64,000 nucleotides of DNA from Candidatus Iainarchaeum sp. (GTDB lineage: Archaea; Iainarchaeota; Iainarchaeia; Iainarchaeales; GCA-2688035): contig JAFCCL010000004.1 in the NCBI GenBank assembly GCA_017610205.1, positions 1 through 64,000 of the forward strand, given 5' to 3'. The position numbers and the translations under genes are program-made. The notes under the pieces are model-generated. The model worked only from the letters and a program-made list of their open reading frames with translations. It was not told the origin of the DNA and ran no database searches. This document shows, piece after piece, positions 1,442 through 61,656 of this stretch. Position 1 is the first letter of the stretch. Every line of letters begins with the position of its first letter.

Positions 1442-2056
1442 ATGGCAGAAAAAAAGCAGGAAAAAAAACAGCCAAGGAAAGTAAAAAAAAGCAGAACTTC
1501 TGACAAATGGAAGAAAAAACAATGGTATAACATCATTGCCCCTGCAGAGTTTGACAGAGTTGTTATAGGCGAAACAGTTGCAGAAAAGCCAAAAAATGTT
1601 GAGGGCAGAATAATAAAAGTCGATTTGGGACAGCTTACTGGACAAAGGCAAAAAAGGTATATTGGAATTTTATTCAAGGTTGAAAATGTTGAAGGAAACA
1701 ATGCAAACTGCAAAACACTTGGACACGAAGCAAGTGCTGGCTTTATCAGCAGACTTGTAAGACGCAGAATGAGCAAGGTAGAAATTGTTCAAACACTTAG
1801 AACAGCTGACAACAAGCGCGTTAAGGTGAAAACAATTGCATTGTCTGTAAGAAAGCTTTCCAAAAAACAGGAAACAGACGTTGGAAAAAAGATGACTGAA
1901 ATGATGAAAGAAATAGTGCTAAAAAAAACTTATGTGCAGGCTTCACAGGAAATGATTTTTGGAGCAATTGCTTCAAAGATCTTCAAAGTGCTTACAAAGA
2001 TTGCGCCCCTTAAAAGGATTGAAATAATTAAAACCAGGGTGCTGGAAGGTAAGTAA
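1442..2056 (+). CDS. rps3ae: 30S ribosomal protein S3Ae
   Basis: Motifs KWYNIIAPAEFD, RTADNKRVKVKTIALSVRK, AIASKIFKVLTKIAPLKRIEIIKTRVLE. Confidence 0.92.
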   Translation: MAEKKQEKKQPRKVKKSRTSDKWKKKQWYNIIAPAEFDRVVIGETVAEKPKNVEGRIIKVDLGQLTGQRQKRYIGILFKVENVEGNNANCKTLGHEASAGFISRLVRRRMSKVEIVQTLRTADNKRVKVKTIALSVRKLSKKQETDVGKKMTEMMKEIVLKKTYVQASQEMIFGAIASKIFKVLTKIAPLKRIEIIKTRVLEGK

Positions 2057-2058
2057 AA

Positions 2059-2748
2059 ATGGCTCTTCCAATGGAAGTGCTGGTCTTAATTCTTTTCGCA
2101 ACTCTTGGAATATTCAGTGTGCTTTCATTTAAAAAAAAGCTATTAAATTTTGAAGGCGTACTAATAGCAAATATTGTCGGTATAGCAATATTCATTTTTG
2201 CAAAATATGATATTACATACTTTTTTGTAGCATTGCTTTTCTTTATTGCTGCAGAAGCAGGAACCCTTTACGCAAAGGAAAGAAAGCCAAAGCATGAAAC
2301 CAGGGCTACAGGAAATATTCTTGGAAACAGCGGCACAGCAATTCTTGCACTAATGCTTGGTTTTCCGTTTGGTTTTTTTGCAGCGTTTGCAAGCGCACTT
2401 GCTGACACACTAAGTAGTGAAATAGGAATTCTTTCAAAAAGAAACCCTGTACTAATAACAACCCTGAAAAAGGTTAAGCCAGGAACTGACGGAGGCGTGA
2501 CACCTTTGGGTTTGGCAGCAGCTTTTGTTGGAGCAACAATAATTGCTTCTGTTCACTTTGCACTCTTTCAAAACATTTTCTTTTTTGCAATACTGATAAT
2601 ATGCGGAGTGTTTGGGTCGCTGGTTGACAGCTTTTTTGGAGCGGTTTTTGAAAGGCACGGAATGCTAAACAATGCAGAGGTTAATTTTTTGGGAAGCCTT
2701 GGAGGAACTGCGCTTGCCCTGGCAATTTTAGGAATGGGACTAATTTAA
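2059..2748 (+). CDS. DUF92 family integral membrane protein
   Basis: Multi-TM with ETRATGNILGNSGTAILALM and LADTLSSEIGILSKRNPVLITTLKKVKPGTDGGVTPLG typical of DUF92. Confidence 0.85.
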   Translation: MALPMEVLVLILFATLGIFSVLSFKKKLLNFEGVLIANIVGIAIFIFAKYDITYFFVALLFFIAAEAGTLYAKERKPKHETRATGNILGNSGTAILALMLGFPFGFFAAFASALADTLSSEIGILSKRNPVLITTLKKVKPGTDGGVTPLGLAAAFVGATIIASVHFALFQNIFFFAILIICGVFGSLVDSFFGAVFERHGMLNNAEVNFLGSLGGTALALAILGMGLI

Positions 2749-2815: not shown

Positions 2816-3337
2816 ATGGAGTTCTGGGTTTTGTTTATACTAAGAGTAAGCCTTATGGCTATTCCACTCTATCTTTGCAATGGCTTTGCCCTTATTTTTG
2901 GCGGAAAAACTCCGCTGGATTTTGGAAAAAACTTTTTTGACGGAAGGCGCATTTTGGGCGGAGGAAAATCAATCAAAGGAACTGCTTCAGGGCTTTTCTT
3001 CGCATTCCTTGGAGTTTTAACAATAAGCTTTGTGTTTCCTGAAACAACCAATGTAATTGGAGCAAACTATCTTGCTTACGGAATGCTGCTTGCAGTTGGA
3101 GCAATTCTTGGAGATTTTGCAGGAAGTTTTGCAAAAAGAAGATTCAATGTCCAAAGAGGAAAAAGTATTTTTCTGGTTGACCAGCTTGACTTTATAATAG
3201 GTGGTTTTGCAGTTGGTATGATTCTTGTAGTTCCAAACGCACTTGAAGTGATTTTTCTTTCAGCATTTACCATGATTATGCACGTAATAAGCAATAGAAT
3301 TGCGTACGTTGTAAAAATGAAAAAGGTGCCGTGGTAA
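2816..3337 (+). CDS. carS: CDP-archaeol synthase
   Basis: NGFALIFGGKTPLDFGKNFFDGRRILGGGKSIKGTASG signature of CarS/DUF46. Confidence 0.9.
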   Translation: MEFWVLFILRVSLMAIPLYLCNGFALIFGGKTPLDFGKNFFDGRRILGGGKSIKGTASGLFFAFLGVLTISFVFPETTNVIGANYLAYGMLLAVGAILGDFAGSFAKRRFNVQRGKSIFLVDQLDFIIGGFAVGMILVVPNALEVIFLSAFTMIMHVISNRIAYVVKMKKVPW

Positions 3338-3834
3338 TGGCAGGAATTCCTGAATTTAAAAAAAAATCTATTGTTTTTCTTGTAAAATTTTTTGTAATTT
3401 ATGCAATACTGCAATTTCTTATACTTGCACTTCCACTGGAATTTTTTGAAAATGGAATTGCAGAAATTGAAGCCGTTGCCATTGGAGCAAGCGCAGAAGG
3501 GAATCTTATTGAATTAAACAGTCATTCGTTTCAGATTGTGCCAAACTGCACAGGGCTTGTTGGAATAAGCGTGCTTGCATCAATAATTTTTGGACTTCGC
3601 AGGCCAAAATTAAAGAAAAAGATTGGCTTGCTTGCTGTTGGGGCAGCAATTCTTTTTCCACTAAACCTTTTAAGGGTATATTTTGTGCTTTGGGCTTCAA
3701 TTTCATTCAGTTTGGACATTGGAGAAACACTGCATATTGCAACCTGGTTTTTGTCAGCAGGAGCAATTCTTGTAATATGGTATTATGCCACAAAAAGAAT
3801 TGCAAAAGTTAAAGAATTCTCTGAGCTTCTTTGA
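3337..3834 (+). CDS. Archaeosortase/exosortase-family transmembrane transpeptidase (short, 165 aa)
   Basis: Multi-TM with the family triad context: Cys in NCTGLVGISV, Arg in FPLNLLRVYFVL, His in ETLHIATWFLSAG; ATG overlaps carS stop. Confidence 0.85.
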   Translation: MAGIPEFKKKSIVFLVKFFVIYAILQFLILALPLEFFENGIAEIEAVAIGASAEGNLIELNSHSFQIVPNCTGLVGISVLASIIFGLRRPKLKKKIGLLAVGAAILFPLNLLRVYFVLWASISFSLDIGETLHIATWFLSAGAILVIWYYATKRIAKVKEFSELL

Positions 3835-4459: not shown

Positions 4460-6070
4460 TTACTTCTTTTCAATTATTGACTTTGCAATTTCTCCAAACG
4501 CAGGCCTTGTTATAAGCACACCTACGAGGACTCCGATTGTTGTAGTGATTGCAAATCCAACCAATCTTCCCAAGCCAAAGCCAATTAAGATTATTGGAAG
4601 CATTGCCGCAATTGTTGTTGAAGCAGCAGCCATTATTATGAAAAATGCCCTTTTTGCCCTTGCAATAAGGCTTCCGGCATGTTCATTCACTCCGCGCCTT
4701 AGCTCGTCAGTAATTATAATCTGGTGGTCAACACCTGTTCCGACAACTGCAAGCAATCCTGCAACAGCACCCAAGTCAAACTTGCTTATAAGAGAAGCCA
4801 GCGCAAGCGTTATTATTACCTCACTTAAGCCAATGAAAACAATTGGCAATGCAAGTTTTAGAATTCTGTACCTTAAGAAAAGAACAAGTGCAACAATAAG
4901 CAATGCAACCAAGCCAATGAATGCAACATTTTGCAAAAAGTTTTCTCCAAGCAAGGGGCTTACTGTTTCCTTGCTTATGCTTTTAACCGAAACACTAAGG
5001 CTTCCTGACTGAAGCAAAATTTCCAAATCACCCCTTCTTTGAATTGCTGCTTCCCTGGTTCCACCAGAACCAAAAATTTGAAGCTTGCTCATTGGCTCTG
5101 CGTTCTCAATCTTTGCAACATCCATTTGGGCAACACTTTCACCCAATCCAATAATGCTTCTCATTCCAACTGCATCAAACACAAAAGGCGTTCCCTGTTC
5201 CTCTTCAACTATTCTAAGCTCAAATCCAAGGTCAATAAGCTGCTGTTGGGTGCTTAAGGCAAGGCTTTCAGGAATTATTGCCTGCTTTTTTTCCAAAACA
5301 AGCTGTTCAAGCAAGCCAAGCTGTTCTTCATTCAAACCATCTTTTTCAACAAGAAAATATGACACCTGCGAATTTAACAAAATTTCATCAATATCCGTTC
5401 CCTCTGCAATTCCCTCGCTTTGAATTCCCTGCAATAAAAGCTGTTCGTCGGAAAAGAAAAGATCTCTTTGCATTACAAGAACGGATTCTTTTGGCCTGTC
5501 AATGAAAAAGTATGTTTTTTCGCATTCATACTCGCGGCCAACTTCGGTGGAGTATGATACAAGGTCACATTTGTGAAAAGTCATTTCAGTAAACCGCTTG
5601 GCAGCAGTGCTTTTTAAAACAAATGGAAGCACCCACCTTACTCCAGAACCCTCATGATATAAGCTGTATCCTTTTGCAGGATCTTTTGGCATTTCAATTA
5701 TGTCCTCTCCTGAAAAAATTACTTCACCCCCGATTGTTGATTCAAAAACACCCTGTTTTTTCAAAAGGGATTCAATTCGCTCAATTGTTTTAGGATCTGA
5801 TTCAGCAATCTGTACAATTACAAAGTCGTCGCCAAAAAAGTTTACGCTAATGTCCTTCAAACCAGTCCAGTCAAGCCTTTGCTGAATTGTTTGAACAACA
5901 CGCGCTCTTTCATCAAGATTTGTTATTGGGTCAGCCAGCTCTATCTGAAAAAGGGTTCCTCCATTAAAATCAATTCCAAAAGTAATTCCCCTAAATCCAA
6001 TTATTGCAAATGAAAGAATCAAAAAGAAGGCAAGCAAGAGCACTTTCCAGTTTTTATAAAGCTCTGTCAT
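4460..6070 (-). CDS. secD: Protein-export membrane protein SecD
   Basis: DFNGGTLFQIEL, multi-TM C-terminal half with GTGVDHQIIITDELRRGV and IARAKRAFFIIMAAASTTIAAMLPI. Confidence 0.88.
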   Translation of the reverse strand: MTELYKNWKVLLLAFFLILSFAIIGFRGITFGIDFNGGTLFQIELADPITNLDERARVVQTIQQRLDWTGLKDISVNFFGDDFVIVQIAESDPKTIERIESLLKKQGVFESTIGGEVIFSGEDIIEMPKDPAKGYSLYHEGSGVRWVLPFVLKSTAAKRFTEMTFHKCDLVSYSTEVGREYECEKTYFFIDRPKESVLVMQRDLFFSDEQLLLQGIQSEGIAEGTDIDEILLNSQVSYFLVEKDGLNEEQLGLLEQLVLEKKQAIIPESLALSTQQQLIDLGFELRIVEEEQGTPFVFDAVGMRSIIGLGESVAQMDVAKIENAEPMSKLQIFGSGGTREAAIQRRGDLEILLQSGSLSVSVKSISKETVSPLLGENFLQNVAFIGLVALLIVALVLFLRYRILKLALPIVFIGLSEVIITLALASLISKFDLGAVAGLLAVVGTGVDHQIIITDELRRGVNEHAGSLIARAKRAFFIIMAAASTTIAAMLPIILIGFGLGRLVGFAITTTIGVLVGVLITRPAFGEIAKSIIEKK

Positions 6071-7146
6071 TAGAAAACACCTGATTTCTTGTTTTTCCTT
6101 TTAGCATACCATAAAAGAATTTCCGCATTCATAAGCCAGGTTGAAACAAGATCTGCAAGCAATCCAAAAAGAATTACGGTTGCAATTTCAAAAATTATGT
6201 AAATCTGGTTCATATAAGCTATTACAATCATTGTGGCAAGAGCAGCCATTGTTGTACCAGTCATTGTAAGACCCGTTGACATGCTGTCAGACGCCCTTTT
6301 TTCAGGAGTCCCCTCCTTTCTCTGCAAAACCCTTGTTGTAAGCATAATGTCTGTATCAACACTGTAACCAATTAGCATTAGCAAGGCAGGAATACTGCTT
6401 AGGGAAAGAGGAATTCCAAAAACCGCCATTAATGCAAGCGCTCCTGCAACATCAAAAATTGCAGCCGAAATTACTGCTATGCTTGGAATAATTTTCCTAA
6501 AAAAAACAAAAATTACAATAATTATCAAAATTCCACCCATTATTGCAACATTGAACGCAGTCTGCCAAAAGGTTGCACCAAGGGTTGGACTTACCTCCTT
6601 TTTTTGAAAAGCAACCTCGCTTCCAAGATTAAAATTCTGCACAATAAGCTGCTGCATTTCCTGATTAAACGTCTGGTCTGCTTCAATAAAATAAAGATCT
6701 GCCTGAGCTACGGCAACCTCAGGTTCAGAAGGCAAAACTGTTTTTTCAAGAAAAGGCGCAAGAATGCTTACTGCAGCTGTTGCTTCCTGTAATGCTGCAG
6801 CAGGATTTGATGCAAGCAAAGAATTTGCCAACTCAACCGAAGCTTTTGCAGAAAGCAAGGTCTGATTTCCTGCAAATTGCACATTTACACCGGTTCCACT
6901 TGGACCAGTAACACTACTTACCTTTAAATCAAGAAGGTCAAAGTTTTGGGAAAGAAGTTCTGAAAGCTCTTCAGCATCAATAGGAGTTTCACTTCTTATT
7001 ACTATAAGGGTCCCACCGCTAAGGTCTATTCCGGCAGGAACAGTTGGCCAGACAAAAATTACAAACATGAAGGCAATGAAAAGCACTACTGGAATTGCAA
7101 TAAAAAGCCTGTGCCTTTTGCCCTCGTAAAAGTTCTCAAAAACCAT
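6070..7146 (-). CDS. secF: Protein-export membrane protein SecF
   Basis: GIDLSGGTLIVI, PALLMLIGYSVDTDIMLTTRVLQR, SMSTGLTMTGTTMAALATMIV. Confidence 0.88.
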   Translation of the reverse strand: MVFENFYEGKRHRLFIAIPVVLFIAFMFVIFVWPTVPAGIDLSGGTLIVIRSETPIDAEELSELLSQNFDLLDLKVSSVTGPSGTGVNVQFAGNQTLLSAKASVELANSLLASNPAAALQEATAAVSILAPFLEKTVLPSEPEVAVAQADLYFIEADQTFNQEMQQLIVQNFNLGSEVAFQKKEVSPTLGATFWQTAFNVAIMGGILIIIVIFVFFRKIIPSIAVISAAIFDVAGALALMAVFGIPLSLSSIPALLMLIGYSVDTDIMLTTRVLQRKEGTPEKRASDSMSTGLTMTGTTMAALATMIVIAYMNQIYIIFEIATVILFGLLADLVSTWLMNAEILLWYAKRKNKKSGVF

Positions 7147-7260
7147 CAAAAAAACCCAATTTTCCCCAAATAACAATTTCTTAAAAAGCTTAAAAATAGC
7201 TCCTTATACCATTAAATTAGACAAAGAATTAAAAAGATTAGCAAAAGAACAGGAAAAGAC

Positions 7261-39830: not shown

Positions 39831-40409
39831 TCAGGAACATTCAGATGATTCAACAAGCTGGTTGAAATAAGAAAGGTTTTCCGGGCGATTTTCCTTGTCA
39901 TTCATTAAAAGCACTGCAACAATCTTGTTATTGCAAAAAGTAACTGCAATATCTGACAAAACAGTGGTTTCTTCGTCCGATGCTTCTGATTCAAGCACAA
40001 CCCAGTCAAGCTGCCCTATTCTTTTTATTTCAGGATGGCTGGACATGTTTATTCCTGAAATTTCTGTTGCATTAATCCAATCAAGTGGAATTTCAGATAC
40101 GTTGGAATATCCCCTTTCATTGTCAGCCATTAAAATTCCTATAAAACTCATTTCCGAATCATCGCCTTCGTTCTTCATAAGCAAAAAAACCGGTTCACTT
40201 CCAGTATCAGAAACCAGTGCATTGAAAATCGCCTGACCTAAAGGGGCATTAGTCCAGTCAATCCATTCACTGCTTGCAGGTGCAATCATGCTAAAGCCAT
40301 ATTTTTCAAAAGACTTTGGTTCCTCAATTGGCTCTGGCGCAGAACCAAGGCATCCGCTGAAAGCAACAACTGCAAGAAAAAAACATGCAAGAAAAATTCC
40401 TTTTTTCAT
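39831..40409 (-). CDS. Lipoprotein
   Basis: MKKGIFLACFFLAVVAFSGC lipobox; 192 aa. Confidence 0.75.
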   Translation of the reverse strand: MKKGIFLACFFLAVVAFSGCLGSAPEPIEEPKSFEKYGFSMIAPASSEWIDWTNAPLGQAIFNALVSDTGSEPVFLLMKNEGDDSEMSFIGILMADNERGYSNVSEIPLDWINATEISGINMSSHPEIKRIGQLDWVVLESEASDEETTVLSDIAVTFCNNKIVAVLLMNDKENRPENLSYFNQLVESSECS

Positions 40410-40464: not shown

Positions 40465-40974
40465 TTAAAATTGTTTTTTCCCTGAAAAAAATAGGAATGC
40501 AAGAACTGAAAAGGCAATCAAAGGCAGCAAAAGAACGGAAAATTCCGGAACAGGAGGCGGTTTGGAAATGAAAAGAGTTAAAGTCTTGAACTTTTGCGCA
40601 TGCAGGGAAGGGATGCCATCACCAACAGTTGGATAAAAGAAATAAAGGCCAGGTCCCCAGTTTCCTTGAACATTAACAGTAAAATTATGATTATCAGTGT
40701 TACCAACAGCCACAGGAATTGAACTTAAGCTGCTAGCAATAAATTTTTGGACACCTGCACTATCCTTAACAACAAGGCCAACAGTTGTACTGCCATCAGT
40801 GTCGCCAATATTCCTAATCACCACATCAACATCAACATTCACAGAACCTGCAGGGCCAACAGAAACAAAAGTATCTGACAAATCAAAGGAAAAAATCTGG
40901 AACTCGGCTTGGGCAAAAGCGTTGCCTGCAAAAAACAGAACAAAAAGCAGTGAAAGGAAATGCAATAATTTCAT
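40465..40974 (-). CDS. Secreted stalk-domain protein with PEF-CTERM-like sorting signal
   Basis: Signal peptide; C-terminus PPPVPEFSVLLLPLIAFSVLAFLFFSGKKQF. Confidence 0.85.
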   Translation of the reverse strand: MKLLHFLSLLFVLFFAGNAFAQAEFQIFSFDLSDTFVSVGPAGSVNVDVDVVIRNIGDTDGSTTVGLVVKDSAGVQKFIASSLSSIPVAVGNTDNHNFTVNVQGNWGPGLYFFYPTVGDGIPSLHAQKFKTLTLFISKPPPVPEFSVLLLPLIAFSVLAFLFFSGKKQF

Positions 40975-45556: not shown

Positions 45557-47416
45557 CTAACTTTTTCGCCTTTCTGAAAAGAACAGTATTGCAAGAGCTG
45601 AAAAGGCAAGCAACGGAATAAAAACAAGGTCAAGCTCTGGCACTGCAGCAGGCTGACCCACTGTGAAAAATACTGATTCCGTATCCGAAGGATCAAACTT
45701 GCCAACCTCATAAGCCTCTACAATAAGCTGGTAGGAACCGGAAGGAAGGAGAGAAACATCAAGGTTGTGTATTAAATCGGCGTGAATTGCTGAATCCCAA
45801 ACTTCTGTTCCTTCCAAAGCAATTGATTTATGGACTCCGCTTACACTAACCTCAGGAACTATAGGCAAGCCTGTAACAGCATCAACAACAGAAAGCTTTA
45901 TTTCAGCATTGACAGTATTATCACCAGAATTCAAAACAGCAATATCTAATGAAGTAAAACTTGGAGTTGCAGAATCAAGTGCAAGAGGCTCTGCAAACAA
46001 TTGAGTAATATTCAAAACACCCTGACCTGTGGAAGCGACAACATTGAAAGGTTTTGTCACAGTGCCCTTGCTGCCAGCAACCAATTCAAATGTTTCAGCA
46101 CTTATTACATAATCATCAATGTCAAGGATTTCTTCTCCAAGACCACCGGCTGCAATCAAATCAAAAGACCCAACTGTTCCAGCTAGAATGGGTTGTGCTC
46201 CAGTAGTAATTGGAATGCCAACAGTAGGTATTTCTGCCTCAACATAAATATTGTAAGCTGTTAAACTGCTTACAGCAACATCAGCCCTTGCCATTGAAAA
46301 CTCGCTTCCCCTTGGCAAAGGAATCGGAGAAGCAAAAACCTTTGTGCCAAAAACAAAAACACGCGCTCCAGGAACACTGCAGACAACATTGGCCACACCA
46401 TTAGGAAGAGAAACAACAATTGGACCCATTTGCCCAAGCGCGTCATAGGGACCGCAGGTAAAAGTGCATATTCCATTTGCACCGCCACTGCATGAAAAAT
46501 CAGCTGCAGAAACACCAGCGCTTCCGCAGTTAATTGATAAATAATCAGGAGGCATTGTATCAAAACCTGCATAAGCAACAGTAACACCAACAATTCCGCT
46601 TTCAATTTCAATCTCTGAAGGAGAAAAACCTACTCCGCAAACACCTGTCCCTGGAACGCTAACAGATATTGTAGTGGTGTCAGTATCCTGCAATCCACCT
46701 AAATCAGTCACAGTCAATGTAACGTCAGCAATGCCCTCATCACTACAAGTAATTGAAGGCTTCATGCCAGTTGCAGTTACAGTACAACCAGGATCGACAG
46801 CCGGGTCATTTGCAATAACCCAATCATAAGTCAGCATAGAGCAATTAGTAAATCCCACACCACAATCTTCATCATCCATAGAACCAGAACCGTCCAAATC
46901 AACAGCATTAGGCAATATTATAACATGCGGAGCACCTGCATCAGCAACAGGAGCAGTATTCAAAACCTCAGCACTGCTGCAGCATACTTTTGTTGCATAA
47001 GGTGCATCTGTGCATGTTGCAATATGGGCATTTGTTGTATCAGAAATTGTTGCAATGCATTCTTCATCAGCATTACAGCTTGCACGATAACTGCATTTCA
47101 AATCACCATAATAAACAGTTGTAGGATAACCAGCTGTTGCAACATGGGCATTGGTTTGACCTGAAAGTGTAAGAACATCGTTAGTTGCAGTGCTAGCATG
47201 CGGGCTTGCTCCAGTGTATTCTTTGCCAAAGATGTCGTCATAACATATTTCTGTAGTGTAACCTCCTGCACCGTTCCAGAGTTCAGCATGTGCGTTGGTT
47301 GGACTGCTAATTCTCATTATAAGTTGGGAATCGTCACCAGGCAATCCTGCACAGGCAGCAAAAGCTGAGGGAAAAAGAAAAAGTGCAAGCAATGCAATGA
47401 AAGCAATTTTGTTCAT
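45557..47416 (-). CDS. Surface protein with PKD-like domain and PEF-CTERM-like sorting signal
   Basis: Signal peptide, TNAHxE-type repeats, C-terminus AVPELDLVFIPLLAFSALAILFFSERRKS. Confidence 0.85.
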   Translation of the reverse strand: MNKIAFIALLALFLFPSAFAACAGLPGDDSQLIMRISSPTNAHAELWNGAGGYTTEICYDDIFGKEYTGASPHASTATNDVLTLSGQTNAHVATAGYPTTVYYGDLKCSYRASCNADEECIATISDTTNAHIATCTDAPYATKVCCSSAEVLNTAPVADAGAPHVIILPNAVDLDGSGSMDDEDCGVGFTNCSMLTYDWVIANDPAVDPGCTVTATGMKPSITCSDEGIADVTLTVTDLGGLQDTDTTTISVSVPGTGVCGVGFSPSEIEIESGIVGVTVAYAGFDTMPPDYLSINCGSAGVSAADFSCSGGANGICTFTCGPYDALGQMGPIVVSLPNGVANVVCSVPGARVFVFGTKVFASPIPLPRGSEFSMARADVAVSSLTAYNIYVEAEIPTVGIPITTGAQPILAGTVGSFDLIAAGGLGEEILDIDDYVISAETFELVAGSKGTVTKPFNVVASTGQGVLNITQLFAEPLALDSATPSFTSLDIAVLNSGDNTVNAEIKLSVVDAVTGLPIVPEVSVSGVHKSIALEGTEVWDSAIHADLIHNLDVSLLPSGSYQLIVEAYEVGKFDPSDTESVFFTVGQPAAVPELDLVFIPLLAFSALAILFFSERRKS

Positions 47417-52919: not shown

Positions 52920-53414
52920 ATGTGCATTATAATTACAGGAAGCCCAGGTGTTGGAAAAACAAGCGTTGCAAAGGCACTTGGCAAAAAGCTTGGCTATTTA
53001 GTGCTTAACGAAAAGCAGTTTGCTCTGGAAGAAAAGATTGGGAAATGGGACCCTGAAGAAGACGAACTTGTCATTCCCTTGATGCCATATGCAAAGGCCT
53101 TAAACAGGCTTTTTTCAGAAAAGAAAAATGTAATAATTGAAGGCCATCTTTTATGCGAATTAAAGACAAAAGCAGATTTTGTGGTCTTACTAAGAGTGCA
53201 TCCAGAGCTGCTTGAAACAAGGCTGCATTTAAGAAATTATTCAGAGGAAAAGGTTCAGGACAATGTTTTCTGCGAAGGAATTGATTACTGCAAAAAACAT
53301 TTGTTAAAAAATTACCCCAAAAAAAGGATTATAGAGGTGGAAAGTGGGAAAACTATAAAAGAAACATTGAACAGAATAATAAAGGGGCTAAAGGAAAAAG
53401 AAGCCAAAATTTGA
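52920..53414 (+). CDS. Adenylate kinase-like NMP kinase (AK6/Fap7 type)
   Basis: ITGSPGVGKTSVAKALGKKLGYLVLNE...VIIEGHLLCEL. Confidence 0.82.
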   Translation: MCIIITGSPGVGKTSVAKALGKKLGYLVLNEKQFALEEKIGKWDPEEDELVIPLMPYAKALNRLFSEKKNVIIEGHLLCELKTKADFVVLLRVHPELLETRLHLRNYSEEKVQDNVFCEGIDYCKKHLLKNYPKKRIIEVESGKTIKETLNRIIKGLKEKEAKI

Positions 53415-53437
53415 ATTTTTGGAAAAGGTGCAAAGTT

Positions 53438-54652
53438 ATGAATAAGTGGATTTTTCTTGCATTATTAATGCTTTTTTCAGTGCCTGTTGTTTCAGGAGAA
53501 ACTGTTTTTGAAAGAAGCTTTGGAGAAATGGGTTATGAAAGCCTGCTTGTAGAAGGCCCACGCCAAACAGAGTGTTTTGAAGCAGAATTCTTATATCCAA
53601 AGGATATTGCAGTAGAAAGCGATGAAATATACCCAATTGCATCAATTGGCATGGAAATAGGGCCTGTACAGGAAGGAAAAATAGATGTAAATGCCTTTTT
53701 GAACAGCAAAGAAATTGCAAACCTTACATTGGAAGATTTCAAATGCAGTGAAGAAAAATGCTGGGAAAGACTTGCATTGCCAAAGGATTTGCTGCTTGAA
53801 GAAGAAAATTCATTGCAGATATGCCTTGGAACAGGCAATAGCATAACAAGCATAATGCTTGACAAGAACTCAGGAATAGGACTTTACAAAGCAGCAGATT
53901 TTTCAGAAGAAAGCGCGTTTAGCACAGCTGCAGAAAAAACAGATTTGGTAAAAGGCGAAAAAACAACAATAAAAATACTTCTACATAACTTAGGGAGTGC
54001 TGCAACAAATGTAAAAGTAGAGTTTGCAAGACCTTTGGCAGAGGACAAAAATGCCTTTTCAGTTGTTGAAGGGAATACATATTACACAGGCGAAATAGCC
54101 CCTGACCAGGAAATTAAATTAGAGTATGTTGTAAAACCAAGAAGGGCAGTGCACATGACTTTGCCTCCTGCAATAGTTTATTTTGAAAATCCTTTTGGGG
54201 AAACTGAATCAAAATTCAGCAACCTTGTTGAATTGAATGTAAGGGAACCTGAAAGAAAAATAGAGGCCTTTGTTGTAAAAGAGGAGGAAACAAGCAGTAT
54301 TGGAAGCCCTATTGAAATGAAGCTTGCTGTAAAAAATGTTGGAAACGACCCGCTTTACAGCCTGAGCACAAGCATTGAATCAGAAGCAGAAATAAGCCAG
54401 CTTGAAAAAACCATTGAGGTATTGCAGCCAAAGGAAACAAAATATTTGCAATTTTCCATTAACAGCAGCAAGCCAGGAAAATTCCCAATAGGCTGCACAA
54501 TAACATATACTGACGCCAATGTTTCTGAAAGCAAATGCCAAAACAGCTTTGCAGAATTTGTACAGCCGGAAATAAATCCAATAATTTACATAGCAATTGC
54601 ATTTATCATAATCGCAATCGGAATTTACCTATACATTATGAAAACAGGGTAA
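53438..54652 (+). CDS. Secreted/membrane protein with Ig-like domains and C-terminal TM
   Basis: Signal peptide MNKWIFLALLMLFSVPVVSG; C-terminal TM PIIYIAIAFIIIAIGIYLYI. Confidence 0.75.
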   Translation: MNKWIFLALLMLFSVPVVSGETVFERSFGEMGYESLLVEGPRQTECFEAEFLYPKDIAVESDEIYPIASIGMEIGPVQEGKIDVNAFLNSKEIANLTLEDFKCSEEKCWERLALPKDLLLEEENSLQICLGTGNSITSIMLDKNSGIGLYKAADFSEESAFSTAAEKTDLVKGEKTTIKILLHNLGSAATNVKVEFARPLAEDKNAFSVVEGNTYYTGEIAPDQEIKLEYVVKPRRAVHMTLPPAIVYFENPFGETESKFSNLVELNVREPERKIEAFVVKEEETSSIGSPIEMKLAVKNVGNDPLYSLSTSIESEAEISQLEKTIEVLQPKETKYLQFSINSSKPGKFPIGCTITYTDANVSESKCQNSFAEFVQPEINPIIYIAIAFIIIAIGIYLYIMKTG

Positions 54653-54686: not shown

Positions 54687-57233
54687 CTATTTTTTTCTCA
54701 AAATAAAGACTACAAATGCAAGCAGCAAAGGCAAAATCAGAATATTGAAATCAGGAACAGGAGCAGGTTTTACCAAGGCAACAGTCAGATACTTTACACT
54801 ACTACTGTCATGCAAAACACCAGAGGCATCATAAACTCTGGCATATAATGCATAACGACCTGGTTCCCAATCGCTATTAACATTGAAGAAAAGATTATCC
54901 GGAGGAGTTGGACCAAAGACTACAGGAGAACTGCCAACAGCCTTTGGCAAAGTAGATTTAGTAATTTTTGACACACCTTCTGGATTAATTACATCAAGTT
55001 CAACAGTAGCAAAATCTGAAACACCCCAGTTGCTAACAGTCACAGTAGCCTCAACTACTTCACTAAAACCACTTTCAACAAACACAGAATTTGGCAAAAT
55101 ATCAAAGGAAGCAATATGGAAATCCCAAGGAGTAGAAGGAGTAACTGTTACAGTTACAGTAGCAGTATCAGAATCAATAGCACCAACATTATCAGTAGCA
55201 GTCAAAGAAACAGTAACATCAGTAGAAACAGCAAAATTACAAACAATAGAACCATTATTTGTCTCAGAAGCACCACTACCATCACTAGTATCAGCAGACG
55301 TTATTGTACAATCATCAGAATAATCAGACATCCAACCACAACCACCTGCAGCTATAAAACCATCCGAATCAGAACAACCACCAAGCAAATTAACCACAGC
55401 ACCACTTGCACCAGAATAATTACCATTAGCCTCAGCAACAGGAGCAACATTTGGCAAAGCAACCACTGTAACTGTTACAAAATCAGCAGCAGAACTAGCA
55501 ACACCATCATCAACAATCAATTGAAAAATATAAATTTCACCAGCACTACCAGAAGTAAACGTCGGCTGAAAATTTGAAGAATCATTTAACACAGGACAGG
55601 GATCAGGCGAAGAAGCATTACAAGCCCAAGAATAAGTCAAACAAGTACCAGAAGAATCACCAACAGGACAATCTTCCGGATCAAAAGAACCACTACCATC
55701 CAAACTAACCAAAAGACCAGAAGGCACAGACTGATCAACACCAGCAACAGCAACAGGAGGATTATCAACAGCACTATTAACAGTGATAACCCTGGTATCA
55801 GGGGTTGGGTCCCATGTGCCAGTGCTGTCTTGGACACGATATTTAATTGTGTAACTGCCCCTGTCGTTGAATACTATAAGTCCAGGGTTTTGCCGAATTG
55901 AGGGAAAGCTGGCCGGGCAGATTCCGTTAATTGTTTCACAAGCCCATTCGTTTGCCTGGATTGCATCACAGGAGTCATCGTCCTGTCCTTGACCCTGAAA
56001 GGTTATGCTTTCCCTTTCAAGTATTGACAGGGGATTGCTTAAAGGAGAGGTGATTGTTGATTCAGGAGCATTGTTTAGGGAAACCGGGTTTTCCATGCAT
56101 TTCTGGTAAGGGTAGCTATCGTTTTTGCTTATATCAATGCCCCAGGTGCTTGTGAAATCCCATCCTGTAAAAGTTGATTGTTGTTTCATTTCAGGTGTTG
56201 TTTTGCCTGTTCCACAATCACTTGTGCTAACTCCGGAAGAGTCCGTGTCCCAAAAACAATTGTTACAGTTGCTGCCAGGCAGATTGCCAAAACGTGCCAG
56301 TCCATAGACACAGCCAATGAGGCAGTTTAACCTTAACCCGCTTAGTTGACCTGTTGCAAAAGAGTTTGTTAGTGTAGTTGCCTCGGCATTCCCAATTAAG
56401 CCTCCAACCCATGAACTGCCAGTTCCAACCCCTGCGCCAACACTGCCTCTTGCAAAACTGTTTTGTATTGTTGAAGACTGGTCAGTCCCAATTAGGCCGC
56501 CGGCAAAACTCTGGCCTATTAAAGAATTAGTGGTTATGTTTGCTGTGGAAAAAGAACAATCTATCAAGGTGTTGAGAGCTGATCCAACTAATCCGCCTGT
56601 AAATGCTGGCCCGTTCACTGTTCCGCTGGAAAAAGAGCGGCAAATTTTTGTTGAATTGGCAGTTCCTATTATGCCGCCAACCCATCCTGCATAAGATGTG
56701 CTTTTTGCCACGCCATTAAAGCTTGAGTCAATTATTGTATCAAGCATGCTATTCCCAATTAGACCTCCAACCCGCTTGTTGGCTTTTACTGTTCCGGTGA
56801 CATTGGAGTTTATTATAACTGAACGACTACTTGCCCCAGCAAGCCCTCCGGTGGGACCAAGAGTGCTGTTTCCTGTTATGCTAACGTTCTCAAGGACCAC
56901 ATTTTTTATTGTTGCACGGCGGAGGTTTCCAAACAAGCCAATGCCATCAGAAACTGTTGTTGTGTCAATGTACAGCCCGGTTATTTTGAAGCCTTGGCCG
57001 TTAAGGCTGCCTGTAAACTTGTCGGAGAGTTTGCCTATTGGCGTGAACCCTGTGCCAGTGTTGAAGGGAAAAACATCACAATCAATATTTTTCCCCAAAA
57101 CATAGTATTCATCGAGATTGATATTCATTGCCTGCAGACCAGCACAGTCTGTAATTGTGGTTAGAGCGCTTGCAGTGCCTGCAAACAGCAGTGCAGAAAA
57201 TAGCAATGCAAAAAGAAACGAGATTTTTTTCAT
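54687..57233 (-). CDS. GLUG-repeat/PKD surface protein with PEF-CTERM-like sorting signal
   Basis: Repeated GGLIGxAxxTxIxxSF units, PKD-like GVDQSVPSGLLVSLDGSGSFDPEDC; C-terminus PVPDFNILILPLLLAFVVFILRKK. Confidence 0.85.
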   Translation of the reverse strand: MKKISFLFALLFSALLFAGTASALTTITDCAGLQAMNINLDEYYVLGKNIDCDVFPFNTGTGFTPIGKLSDKFTGSLNGQGFKITGLYIDTTTVSDGIGLFGNLRRATIKNVVLENVSITGNSTLGPTGGLAGASSRSVIINSNVTGTVKANKRVGGLIGNSMLDTIIDSSFNGVAKSTSYAGWVGGIIGTANSTKICRSFSSGTVNGPAFTGGLVGSALNTLIDCSFSTANITTNSLIGQSFAGGLIGTDQSSTIQNSFARGSVGAGVGTGSSWVGGLIGNAEATTLTNSFATGQLSGLRLNCLIGCVYGLARFGNLPGSNCNNCFWDTDSSGVSTSDCGTGKTTPEMKQQSTFTGWDFTSTWGIDISKNDSYPYQKCMENPVSLNNAPESTITSPLSNPLSILERESITFQGQGQDDDSCDAIQANEWACETINGICPASFPSIRQNPGLIVFNDRGSYTIKYRVQDSTGTWDPTPDTRVITVNSAVDNPPVAVAGVDQSVPSGLLVSLDGSGSFDPEDCPVGDSSGTCLTYSWACNASSPDPCPVLNDSSNFQPTFTSGSAGEIYIFQLIVDDGVASSAADFVTVTVVALPNVAPVAEANGNYSGASGAVVNLLGGCSDSDGFIAAGGCGWMSDYSDDCTITSADTSDGSGASETNNGSIVCNFAVSTDVTVSLTATDNVGAIDSDTATVTVTVTPSTPWDFHIASFDILPNSVFVESGFSEVVEATVTVSNWGVSDFATVELDVINPEGVSKITKSTLPKAVGSSPVVFGPTPPDNLFFNVNSDWEPGRYALYARVYDASGVLHDSSSVKYLTVALVKPAPVPDFNILILPLLLAFVVFILRKK

Positions 57234-57405: not shown

Positions 57406-60400
57406 TCACCAGTTGCTTTCAATCTTTTTTACAAGCTCTTCCTTTTGCTTTCCATCCTTTTCCTTTTTGAGCCTTATAAACAAAACAAGACCTGCACAGG
57501 CTGCCAGTGGAATGGCAAGGATTGGCAGGTTTAATCCAGTTGGCTGTGATGGAAGTGCCATTAATGCTGTTGCATTCTTTGATTCTGCAATTGATTCAAG
57601 ATAGCTTCCGTCAAGCAAAAGATTTTTGGATTTTTCAAGGCTTTCGTTTGCCGTGGTGTTGTCAGGGTTGCTGTTGAATATTTCTGCAGCACTGTTAAAT
57701 GAAACAACAGCATCTTCCTTGATTTGAGAAAATGAGTCTGAAAGGCGTGAAGAAATTTGTTCTGTTTCCAAAAGCTTTTCGTCAAGCTGTTTTGAGAATG
57801 GATTTGATTCCTCTAAGGCTGCGTCAATGTCGCCTTGTTCTGCAAATTGTTGAAAATCCTGCACCTGCTTTTTTCCAAGGAATGATTTAAGGCTGTTAAT
57901 ATTGAGCCTTAGCTTGTCAAGCTCTTCTCTTGTTATTGGGAGGGGATATTTTGATGAAATTATTTGCTCATCCGAAATGTTTGAGAAGATTGTGTCAAGC
58001 AGTCCAAGGTTTTCCTCTGCAGAATAAAGATTGGATTGAATGGAATTGATTTTTTCAGAAATTTTTATTGTTTCGGCAATATTTTGAATTTGCTGTGCAG
58101 TGTTTTGGAAATTGGAAACTAGGGCAATGGTGTTGGTGTCAATGGTTTGAGAAAAGAGTTCTGGAGGCTGTAGAAGGCTGTTGCTTGTACTCTTTGAAAA
58201 GCGCAGCACTGTTTTGCCTTGCGGGAGGCCGTTGAGGTCTAGGGAAATTGTTTTTCCATCTGTTTTAAATGAAAGAATATTTGGGCTAAAGGCAGTAACT
58301 GTTGCTGTATTTTTGTCAAAGGGAAGTTGTATTGTAAGAGGCCCTGTAATTGAATATGGAAAAGTGTTGTCAAGCTCTATTTCAATGTCTTGGTTTGTTT
58401 CAATAATTGAAGCATTTTCCTGCACAAAGGAATGAATTGCTGTGTTAAGTGTTTCTTCAAGCAATGCAAGAAATTCTGAAAGGCTTTGTTTAAGGTCAGG
58501 AAGAAGCGGCAGGGATTTTTCAAAAATAAGGTTTTGGTTTGAAAAAAAGCTTTTAAAATAGGCTTTTTGCGATTCAATGTTTTTCATTTTTGTTTTGGAA
58601 ACAAGGTCTTTAGATTCGGCAATTTCTAGAGCTGAAAGCATTTGATTGGCTTGAAAAAATTGGCTTTCAATTTCTATTATAGCAGGCTGGTTTTGAAGAA
58701 ATGTCCTAAGGTCGGTTTCAAGTGCAGTGCAGATTCTTTTAACGGCTTCAAGGTTGGAGTAAGGCTGTTCAATATTTTTAAGTTGAAGAAACCTTAGGTT
58801 AAAATCGTCAAAGGAAATTCCGCTTGCTTTGCTGCTTTCAAGGCTTTTGTTGATAAACGAAAGGCATTCTTCAAGTGCTGTTTCTTCAAGCAATTGGTAT
58901 TCTTTAAAGTTTTGCAATGCCAGAGAAAATCTTGAAAATTCGTCAACCATTTCAGCGCATTGAAAAAGCTTTTGTTCATTTTCTTTGGCTTGCCTAAACA
59001 AAGAAAGCTTAAATTTGGCTCTTGCTTTTAGGTCTGATGCTGTTGAAATATAATCAGTTGGAAGTGAAGCCTGTTCAAGCTCTTGTTCAATAAAACCTGC
59101 TCTTTCGTTGCAAAGTACAAGCAGTCCGCCTAGAACCTCATTTCTCAGGTATTCTGAATTTTCTTTAAGAAAGGAAAGGTCTGAGTTTAATTGTTTTAAG
59201 GATTCTGCCTTTTTGCCAAGACTTAGGTTGTTCAAGGAATCCTGCTGCCGGAGCAAGGCAAGCTCCTGTTTTAGTTCAGAAAGTTTTGCACTGGATTCTT
59301 CCCTTAGTTCGCCAAAGTCTCTGATACCATACTTTTGTGACGAAGCAATGCTTTCCTGATTCAAACCAGAGTAGAGTTTTTGGAAAAATTCACTGTCAAA
59401 GCCCGAATATTTTTCTGAAAGCAGGGCATTGATTTCTTTCTCGGTTTCAAGAATTGCCTTTGAAGCGCTTGCTTCAAGTTCTGCATTCCTTTGCATTAAT
59501 TGCTTTCTGTGCAATGCATTCTGTTCAATTAAAACAGAAAATTTGGCAAGGCAGGTGTTGTCTGTTCCCATAAAGTTGCTGTAAATTTGGATAAATTGAA
59601 ATGCAGGAACCTTTTCAAGTTCACCAACGGCATTTTCTGCAGTTGAAAGATTTGCAAGGTATGACACAAAGGATGGAAGCAGTGGGTCAATAAATGGAAT
59701 GCCAAATTCGCTGTTGAAATATTTTGCAATTAATGAAGAAGGTTGGCTTAAAATTGAAAAAATATTTGATTCGCTTACAATGCTTTGACCAAAACCTGTT
59801 GAATTTGTAAGAGAGACAAAGCTTGATGTTTGAGTTAAGTAAAAACAAGAATAGCTTTCATTGCTTTGGCAGGTTTCAGGGCTGGAAAGCTGGCTTATGT
59901 TTAATGAAAGCAGTGCAAAATCGTTAAACAATGGCTCTTCTTTTGCAAGATTTAAGTCCTCTTTTTCAAGATCTTCGTGTTCCAAAAACATGATTGCAAA
60001 ACTTTCCCTGTTTGCCAAGTCACTGAATTCAAAGGCCTTTGACATATTGTGAGTTAACTCATTCAACTGAAAAATAAGACCTGAAAGACTTTTGTTTTTG
60101 CTGCAAATGCTATGAATGGCTGAAATGTTTTCTCTTGCCTTGTTGAAGTAAAGCCAGCTTAATGAGGCATTGTTTTTGTAACTGTAAAGCCTGTTTCTTA
60201 CTTCGCTGCTGAAAACGCTTTGGTCAAAAGAAAAAAAGTTTGCTTCAAGTTTGGAAAAGCATTCCTTTTCATTATCGCATTCCGGAACAAACGCATAGCT
60301 TTTTTCAGTTAAGTCAAGGCAGTAAAACCTTTGCTCAGGGCTTAATGAATCAATGCAGCCGCTTAATGCAAGCAAAAGAGCAATTGCAAGCAAGGGCAGT

Positions 60401-60414
60401 ATTTGCTTTAGCAT
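57406..60414 (-). CDS. Large coiled-coil lipoprotein with additional C-terminal TM
   Basis: MLKQILPLLAIALLLALSGC lipobox start; C-terminal LPILAIPLAACAGLVLFIRLKK. Confidence 0.75.
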   Translation of the reverse strand: MLKQILPLLAIALLLALSGCIDSLSPEQRFYCLDLTEKSYAFVPECDNEKECFSKLEANFFSFDQSVFSSEVRNRLYSYKNNASLSWLYFNKARENISAIHSICSKNKSLSGLIFQLNELTHNMSKAFEFSDLANRESFAIMFLEHEDLEKEDLNLAKEEPLFNDFALLSLNISQLSSPETCQSNESYSCFYLTQTSSFVSLTNSTGFGQSIVSESNIFSILSQPSSLIAKYFNSEFGIPFIDPLLPSFVSYLANLSTAENAVGELEKVPAFQFIQIYSNFMGTDNTCLAKFSVLIEQNALHRKQLMQRNAELEASASKAILETEKEINALLSEKYSGFDSEFFQKLYSGLNQESIASSQKYGIRDFGELREESSAKLSELKQELALLRQQDSLNNLSLGKKAESLKQLNSDLSFLKENSEYLRNEVLGGLLVLCNERAGFIEQELEQASLPTDYISTASDLKARAKFKLSLFRQAKENEQKLFQCAEMVDEFSRFSLALQNFKEYQLLEETALEECLSFINKSLESSKASGISFDDFNLRFLQLKNIEQPYSNLEAVKRICTALETDLRTFLQNQPAIIEIESQFFQANQMLSALEIAESKDLVSKTKMKNIESQKAYFKSFFSNQNLIFEKSLPLLPDLKQSLSEFLALLEETLNTAIHSFVQENASIIETNQDIEIELDNTFPYSITGPLTIQLPFDKNTATVTAFSPNILSFKTDGKTISLDLNGLPQGKTVLRFSKSTSNSLLQPPELFSQTIDTNTIALVSNFQNTAQQIQNIAETIKISEKINSIQSNLYSAEENLGLLDTIFSNISDEQIISSKYPLPITREELDKLRLNINSLKSFLGKKQVQDFQQFAEQGDIDAALEESNPFSKQLDEKLLETEQISSRLSDSFSQIKEDAVVSFNSAAEIFNSNPDNTTANESLEKSKNLLLDGSYLESIAESKNATALMALPSQPTGLNLPILAIPLAACAGLVLFIRLKKEKDGKQKEELVKKIESNW

Positions 60415-60480
60415 AAAGAAAACTGCTTCCTGCAAAGCTTTTAAAACAAGCAAAAAATTCGGCAAAAAACGAAGGATGAA

Positions 60481-61656
60481 CTATCCCCGGCTATTGTAGG
60501 GGGTTTCCTGTTTCATCGGCAATACTTGCTTCGGGCTTATGCCGTCAGTAGAGGTTTCATCTCCAACAGGCGTTGATTTGGGTTGTTCCAACCCTATCCC
60601 AGTTATGAGTATATTTTGTGCAGCGTTTATATCTCGGTCTATTTCTAGACTACAATGATGACATTTGTGTATTCTCATTGTTAATGTTTTTCTAACAATC
60701 TCTCCACATCCACTGCATTTTTGACTTGTGTTTTTTGGATTCATTTTCACTATTTTTCCTCCAGCACTTTCAGCCTTGAAAAAAAGTTTGCTTGTGAAAT
60801 CACTCCAAGAAACATCTGTTATTTCTCTTGCAAGATAATGATTTTTTAACATTCCTTTTACATTCAAATTCTCAATATATATTGTTCCATATTTTTCAAT
60901 AAGTTTTCTGCATAGTTTCCAGCCAAAATCGTTTCTGGTGTTTGCTATTTGTTCGTCCATTATTGCTAACTTGACTCTCGCTTTGTTTCGGTTGTTGCTT
61001 TTTTTCTTTGTTTTGCTAAACTTTTTTGCCAGAACCTTTCTTTTTTCTGACATTTTCCCAAGTGGCTTTGGATGATCAAAAAATTCACTATTGCTTGTGG
61101 TGATAAAATGATTTAAACCAAAATCTATACCAACTTCACCATTTCCAACCGTTATTTTTTCTTTAGGCATATTATCACAAAAAATCGTAACAAAGTATTT
61201 TCCGCTTTTCGCTTTCTTGATTGTCATTATTTTTGGGGTTCCTTGTAGTACTCTGTGGTATTTTATGTTCAGCCAACCAATTTTTGGGAAACGAGTTTTC
61301 TTACCTATGTTCTTTGGTTTGGTTATTTGCGGAAGTGTGATGCTGTTATAAGTTCCATATTTTTTAAATCTTGGAAAGCCCTTTTTTCTTTCATCTCTCT
61401 TGATTCTTGCAAAAAAGTTTTTGTATGCTTTGTCAATCCTATCAGCCACATTCTGGCTGACTTGTGAGTACATTTCTTTGTTTCCCTTTACTCGTCTATA
61501 TAGGTCTTTTCTTGATAGTCTAACACTCTTATTTTTATAAGCATCTTTTTTCAGGGCAAGAAGTTTGTTATACAATAATCTGCATTTTTCTATTTGCAAG
61601 TCTATTTCACTTGCCTGTTTTTTTGTTGGATAAACTCTATATTTATAGGTTTTCAT
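60481..61656 (-). mobile_element. tnpB: IS200/IS605-type TnpB (RNA-guided nuclease family), no tnpA alongside
   Basis: VGIDFGLNHF (D), IYIENLNVKG (E), CSGCGEIV...CHHCSLEIDRDINAAQNIL (Zn finger plus D); GC hairpin CCCCGGCTATTGTAGGGG at the 3' end. Confidence 0.9.

What the first reader, a model, noticed from the sequence alone, without database searches (positions are those of the whole stretch)
3337..3834. Minimal archaeosortase likely serving the local PEF-CTERM-like surface proteins
The 165-aa membrane protein keeps the Cys (NCTGL), Arg (NLLRV) and His (LHIATW) contexts of the exosortase/archaeosortase family. The same window encodes three secreted proteins with tripartite tails (P-[DE]-[FL], TM, basic end). 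A matched enzyme-substrate set in one 64-kb window is testable. The motif variants PEF, PEL and PDF suggest relaxed specificity.
Basis: partly seen in the sequence, partly recalled or inferred. Interest (0 to 1): 0.7.

Follow-up and report, generated by a model that had tools for sequence, protein, structure and literature searches.

The report
Lipid-linked archaeosortase with surface-protein tails
A small membrane enzyme of an uncultured Diapherotrites-type archaeon belongs to a group that cuts and anchors surface proteins; its gene is locked to a membrane-lipid synthesis gene throughout the lineage, and the same lineage carries a matching but only loosely conserved protein tail, which makes a sorting system in a hardly studied group of archaea testable.

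Summary
In detail: 3337-3834 (+) encodes a 165-aa exosortase/archaeosortase-superfamily protein with invariant Cys71, Arg113 and His133, and three secreted proteins in the window end in VPEF/VPEL/VPDF + TM + basic tails. It is well below the cut-off of every named subfamily, including ArtC, the PEF-CTERM partner. Two parts of the interpretation change. (1) It is not the only one: the genome has a second, different exosortase-like protein, and most Iainarchaeota/Diapherotrites genomes carry both. (2) The three tails are the only ones in the genome and share a homologous C-terminal Ig-like domain, so alone they are weak evidence. A tail profile from the own family nevertheless retrieves exact C-terminal tails, mostly '(V/I)PE[T/L]', in many other families, two of them in one complete genome on proteins with no mutual body similarity. 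In 26 of 26 named loci the archaeosortase gene follows CDP-archaeol synthase (CarS), within 150 bp in 24; in the window they overlap by one base. Best reading: a lineage-specific archaeosortase that trims a few surface proteins and joins them to an archaeol lipid. Cleavage and lipid attachment are inferred by analogy with ArtA. New variant of a known kind.

The parts
3337..3834 (+). archaeosortase-family protein, 165 aa, 'type 1' (C71, R113, H133)
   Evidence: TIGR04178 and PF09721 above cut-off; orthologue alignments; AlphaFold2 model mean pLDDT 90.5
2816..3337 (+). CarS, CDP-archaeol synthase; its stop codon overlaps the archaeosortase ATG by one base (TAATG)
   Evidence: NF003114 159.1 bits (cut-off 148), PF01864; adjacency in 26/26 loci
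2059..2748 (+). DUF92 integral membrane protein (TIGR00297-like), upstream in the same block
   Evidence: PF01940 163.5 bits; block conserved
1442..2056 (+). ribosomal protein S3ae, start of the conserved block
   Evidence: PF01015
4460..6070 (-). SecD, convergent neighbour
   Evidence: NF006216/NF006218, PF02355; block conserved
6070..7176 (-). SecF
   Evidence: NF006353, PF02355; block conserved
40465..40974 (-). secreted 169-aa protein with VPEF tail, putative substrate A
   Evidence: homologues in same genus/family keep the tail
45557..47416 (-). secreted 619-aa PKD-domain protein with VPEL tail, putative substrate B
   Evidence: apparent orthologue in G029 ends ISEL + TM + AKKN
54687..57233 (-). 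secreted 848-aa GLUG/PKD protein with VPDF tail, putative substrate C
   Evidence: shares its C-terminal ~150 aa with A (38% identity)

Best explanation
The protein is a lineage-specific archaeosortase of Iainarchaeota (Candidatus Diapherotrites). After Sec export, a few surface proteins stay in the membrane by a C-terminal (V/I)PE[T/L/F]-TM-basic tail; Cys71, helped by Arg113 and His133, cuts near the PE motif and the new C-terminus is passed to an archaeol-based lipid whose precursor is supplied by CarS from the same operon. Shown here: family membership, invariant candidate catalytic residues, conserved CarS-archaeosortase gene pair, conserved tails. Inferred: cleavage, the enzyme-tail pairing, lipid attachment and the identity of the lipid.
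For: Membership. Invariant C/R/H plus N110, W137, W148. CarS directly upstream in 26/26 named loci, <150 bp in 24/26, against 7/20 for the neighbouring DUF92-CarS gap; also in 23/24 type-1 loci (partly the same genomes), including one outside the order (L103). Tails: profile A4, built only from own-family tails, retrieves exact C-terminal tails in other families (G029 9.7e-9 and 4.4e-7, G028 7e-6, G058, G045). Tail identity 51% against 31% for the adjacent 110 aa, tail higher in 73 of 78 pairs. Two IPET proteins in the complete genome G029 share no detectable body similarity. Tail genes lie within about 5 kb of the archaeosortase in L117, L124, L129 and, weakly, L139. Families lacking type 1 lack strong tails (0/5 against 10/16, Fisher p 0.035), although f4 and f16 keep the second exosortase. 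Precedent: artA is next to pssA/pssD in Methanosarcina, and HvPssA/HvPssD are needed for ArtA cleavage and lipidation (PMC7157517).
Against: The second exosortase co-occurs in most genomes and could serve the tails. Four to six families have type 1 but no (strong) tail detected. The family-level association vanishes with a looser tail threshold (p 0.28), and the threshold was set after seeing the data with a profile seeded partly from those families. A, B and C are homologous, so their tails are not independent in this genome. The CarS link could be inherited gene order of a housekeeping block. The genome has no detectable PS decarboxylase homologue, so the ArtA lipid route would have to differ.
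Confidence: 0.6

Rival explanations
1. The (V/I)PE tails are processed by the second exosortase-like protein (XrtH/XrtX-like, G000:C12:315-869), and the CarS-linked enzyme has other, unrecognised substrates.
For: The second enzyme is present in about 62 of 80 order genomes, so it co-occurs with tails almost as well; G002 has four strong tails and the second enzyme but no type 1 in its 79%-complete assembly.
Against: f4 genomes and G032 (f16) have the second enzyme but no type 1 and no strong tail; tail genes lie near the type-1 locus in four loci.
Confidence: 0.17
2. The tails are plain C-terminal membrane anchors of one expanding surface-protein family and are not cleaved by any sortase.
For: A, B and C are homologous over the C-terminal Ig-like domain; many other proteins of the genome end in ordinary C-terminal TM anchors; only a few tails per genome.
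Against: The tail is better conserved than the adjoining domain (51% against 31%), PE is nearly invariant just before a short TM, and the tail occurs on G029 proteins without body similarity.
Confidence: 0.15
3. The CarS-archaeosortase adjacency is inherited gene order without functional meaning (compatible with the enzyme still sorting the tails).
For: The whole block S3ae-DUF92-CarS-Art/SecD-SecF-NOG1 is conserved.
Against: The DUF92-CarS joint of the block is often broken (<150 bp in 7/20, with an SppA-like gene between them in ten loci) while CarS-Art stays tight in 24/26; it also holds in a genome of another order (L103).
Confidence: 0.3

Closest known systems
Archaeosortase A (ArtA) / PGF-CTERM of Haloferax volcanii
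   Same: Superfamily core; tripartite tails on surface proteins; genetic link of an archaeosortase to archaeal lipid synthesis (pssA/pssD next to artA in Methanosarcina, PMC7157517)
   Different: 31.5 bits against a cut-off of 75; experimentally critical residues C173/R214/R253 (PMC9263693) against C71/R113/H133 here; 165 aa instead of about 270-300; tail is (V/I)PE[T/L/F]; partner gene is carS; no PS decarboxylase homologue found in this genome
Archaeosortase C / PEF-CTERM (TIGR03762 / TIGR03024)
   Same: Tail motif P-E-F before a TM, basic end
   Different: Enzyme 17.1 bits against 100; tails 13.3-16.3 bits against 23
Archaeosortase D (TIGR04175)
   Same: Nearest named subfamily by score, similar length (150 positions); all 27 aligned orthologues match it weakly
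   Different: P0001 scores 35.5 bits against a cut-off of 125
Pacearchaeosortase (NF033505)
   Same: Small archaeosortase model of 167 positions
   Different: 25.4 bits against a cut-off of 80

Membership tests
exosortase/archaeosortase superfamily (TIGR04178, PF09721) | profile score above curated cut-off | tested here: met
   44.2/23 and 34.7/25.7 bits
exosortase/archaeosortase superfamily (TIGR04178, PF09721) | conserved Cys, Arg and His in the core | tested here: met
   C71, R113, H133 invariant in 27 aligned sequences
exosortase/archaeosortase superfamily (TIGR04178, PF09721) | protease/transpeptidase activity on a C-terminal sorting tail | not testable with these tools
   needs biochemistry
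ArtC / PEF-CTERM system | enzyme above TIGR03762 cut-off | tested here: not met
   17.1 against 100 bits
ArtC / PEF-CTERM system | tails above TIGR03024 cut-off | tested here: not met
   16.3 and 13.3 against 23 bits for tails A and B; C not hit
ArtA / PGF-CTERM system | enzyme above TIGR04125 cut-off | tested here: not met
   31.5 against 75 bits
ArtD | enzyme above TIGR04175 cut-off | tested here: not met
   35.5 against 125 bits
pacearchaeosortase | enzyme above NF033505 cut-off | tested here: not met
   25.4 against 80 bits
tripartite CTERM sorting signal (general) | motif + TM + basic end at the extreme C-terminus of secreted proteins | tested here: met
tripartite CTERM sorting signal (general) | same tail on proteins with unrelated bodies | tested here: inconclusive
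   own genome: bodies homologous; G029: two IPET proteins without detectable body similarity, but both seem to end in an Ig/CARDB-like strand before the tail
tripartite CTERM sorting signal (general) | co-occurrence with a cognate sortase across genomes | tested here: inconclusive
   10/16 against 0/5 families, p 0.035; loose threshold p 0.28

The most novel reading that the evidence does not exclude
The archaeosortase works as a unit with CarS: the cleaved surface protein is joined to an archaeol lipid made directly from, or one step after, CDP-archaeol, without the archaetidylserine decarboxylase step implicated for ArtA. This would be a second lipid-coupling route for archaeosortases, ancestral in the Iainarchaeota.
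Probability: 0.2. Interest if true: 0.75.

Novelty: new variant of a known kind. Interest (0 to 1): 0.5.

Why it matters
Which lipid archaeosortases attach, and how it is supplied, is only partly known and from haloarchaea. A conserved carS-archaeosortase gene pair across a DPANN lineage suggests that lipid activation and protein anchoring are coupled there, with about 2-4 candidate substrates per genome in the best-covered genomes, few enough to test one by one. It also gives tail annotation for surface proteins of archaea whose cell envelope is almost unknown.

Tried and rejected
(a) Sole archaeosortase of the genome: rejected, second copy at C12. (b) ArtC/PEF-CTERM membership: rejected by score. 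(c) Solved-structure relatives: none by sequence or fold (best Foldseek E 2.3); not informative. (d) Other C-terminal TM tails in the own genome such as 53411-54652 (QPEINPIIY...) and 57406-60465: not hit by the tail profile, taken as ordinary anchors. (f) First genome-contig scan with a too diverse alignment failed. (g) Haft et al. 2012 is not held in the library. (h) Family search of two full tail proteins from other genomes failed on coordinates and was not repeated.

Full report
Observation. ORF 3337-3834 (+) gives a 165-aa protein. It passes the superfamily cut-offs TIGR04178 (44.2/23 bits) and PF09721 (34.7/25.7) but none of the named subfamilies: ArtD 35.5/125, ArtA 31.5/75, ArtE 29.3/95, pacearchaeosortase 25.4/80, ArtC 17.1/100. 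All 27 members of an orthologue alignment match TIGR04178, and all match ArtD, the nearest named model. C71, R113 and H133 are invariant, as are N110, W137 and W148. AlphaFold2 gives a confident model, mean pLDDT 90.5, with helices 6-31, 35-49, 74-86, 92-123, 126-156 and a small beta region at 52-66. No solved structure resembles it by sequence or fold.

Organism. The scan of named genomes returned 26 relatives, most labelled Candidatus Diapherotrites, ainarchaeum or 'archaeon'; a few labels (Chloroflexi, Falkowbacteria, Thaumarchaeota, Micrarchaeota) are probably mislabelled bins. The window lies in a 1.37-Mb, 24-contig, 92%-complete genome. The name Iainarchaeota for this group is from my own knowledge of the taxonomy.

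Two exosortases. The own genome has a second superfamily member at C12:315-869, XrtX/XrtH-like, with ELCTGL, NYARI and THN motifs. In the order, 78 of 80 genomes have at least one superfamily member and 63 at least two (counted by hand from the table). With profile A1, 67 of 80 have a type-1 protein (at least 111 bits; next best 66.5; counted). The second type occurs in about 62 of 80 order genomes. In G029, a single-contig genome, the second type sits near proteins that look like a type IV pilus-type ATPase and membrane protein (my reading of the sequences), not near CarS.

Lipid link. The type-1 gene overlaps the CarS stop codon by one base in the window (TAATG). In 26 of 26 named loci CarS is directly upstream on the same strand, and S3ae-DUF92-CarS-Art, then convergent SecD-SecF and NOG1, is the common order where the contig reaches. 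The CarS-Art gap is under 150 bp in 24/26, against 7/20 for DUF92-CarS, where an SppA-like gene on the other strand lies between in ten loci; other joints of the block, such as SecD-SecF, are also tight. In a partly overlapping set, 23 of 24 type-1 loci have CarS, including L103 from another order of the class. The genome has GGGP synthase and one CDP-alcohol phosphatidyltransferase but no detectable PS decarboxylase; absence in a 92%-complete assembly is not proof.

Tails. The three tails are KPPPVPEFSVLLLPLIAFSVLAFLFFSGKKQF, QPAAVPELDLVFIPLLAFSALAILFFSERRKS and KPAPVPDFNILILPLLLAFVVFILRKK. They are the only such tails in the genome. A-C share 38% identity over 150 aa and A-B also match, including the domain before the tail, so they are not independent. 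Homologues in the genus and family keep the tail. Tail identity averages 51% against 31% for the preceding 110 aa, higher in 73 of 78 pairs.

A profile of own-family tails (A4) finds C-terminal tails in other families of the order. There the motif is often (I/V)PET, so PEF/PEL/PDF are local variants of a wider (V/I)PE[T/L/F] class. G029 (97% of its letters read) has two strong IPET tails, on a 784-aa and a 1106-aa protein with no mutual body similarity at E 0.01, and a weaker ISEL tail on the apparent orthologue of substrate B. The wider profile A5 was seeded with hits from several families, so its counts (44 of 80 genomes) are partly circular.

Pairing. At family level, strong tails (E at most 1e-5) occur in 10 of 16 families with type 1 and in 0 of 5 without (p 0.035); with the loose threshold 12/16 against 2/5 (p 0.28). 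The strict threshold was chosen after seeing the data, so this is weak support. f4 genomes and G032 keep the second exosortase without type 1 or strong tails. Tail genes lie within about 5 kb of the type-1 gene in L117, L124, L129 (probably one lineage) and weakly L139. G002 is an exception, with tails and no type 1 found, in a 79%-complete assembly.

Mechanism. By analogy with ArtA, where cleavage and lipid attachment need PssA and PssD and artA can neighbour pssA/pssD (PMC7157517), I infer that type 1 trims the PE tail and hands the protein to an archaeol lipid. ArtA's critical residues are C173, R214 and R253 (PMC9263693); here the third conserved residue is a His. No paper in the held library combines exosortase with Diapherotrites or with CDP-archaeol synthase; most subscription papers are not held, so this is no proof of novelty.

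Noticed in passing
G000:C12:315-869 (L003): Second exosortase-like protein of the genome, XrtX/XrtH-like, found in about 62 of 80 order genomes; substrates unknown.
   Followed up: partly
45557-47416 (-) and G029 1123858-1126008: Repeated 'TNAH...CC' modules in substrate B and its apparent G029 orthologue; substrate B has no clear Pfam domain there.
   Followed up: no
L116, L117, L118, L124, L125, L126, L129, L132, L135, L136: SppA-like signal peptide peptidase gene between DUF92 and CarS on the opposite strand; not there in the window.
   Followed up: partly
53411-54652 (+): TRAP-beta/CARDB-like protein with a C-terminal TM next to substrate C; a similar neighbour is seen beside tail genes in L152 and L155.
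   Followed up: no
G008:C1:53710-56495, G009:C33:2435-2911: Exosortase-domain matches inside unusually long open frames of about 490-535 aa in two family genomes.
   Followed up: no
39831-40409 (-) and 57406-60465 (-): Secreted proteins with lipobox-like FSGC/LSGC motifs near the tail genes, suggesting a second, N-terminal lipid anchoring route.
   Followed up: no
60481-61656 (-): Protein that looks like an IS605-type OrfB/TnpB, read from the sequence only.
   Followed up: no
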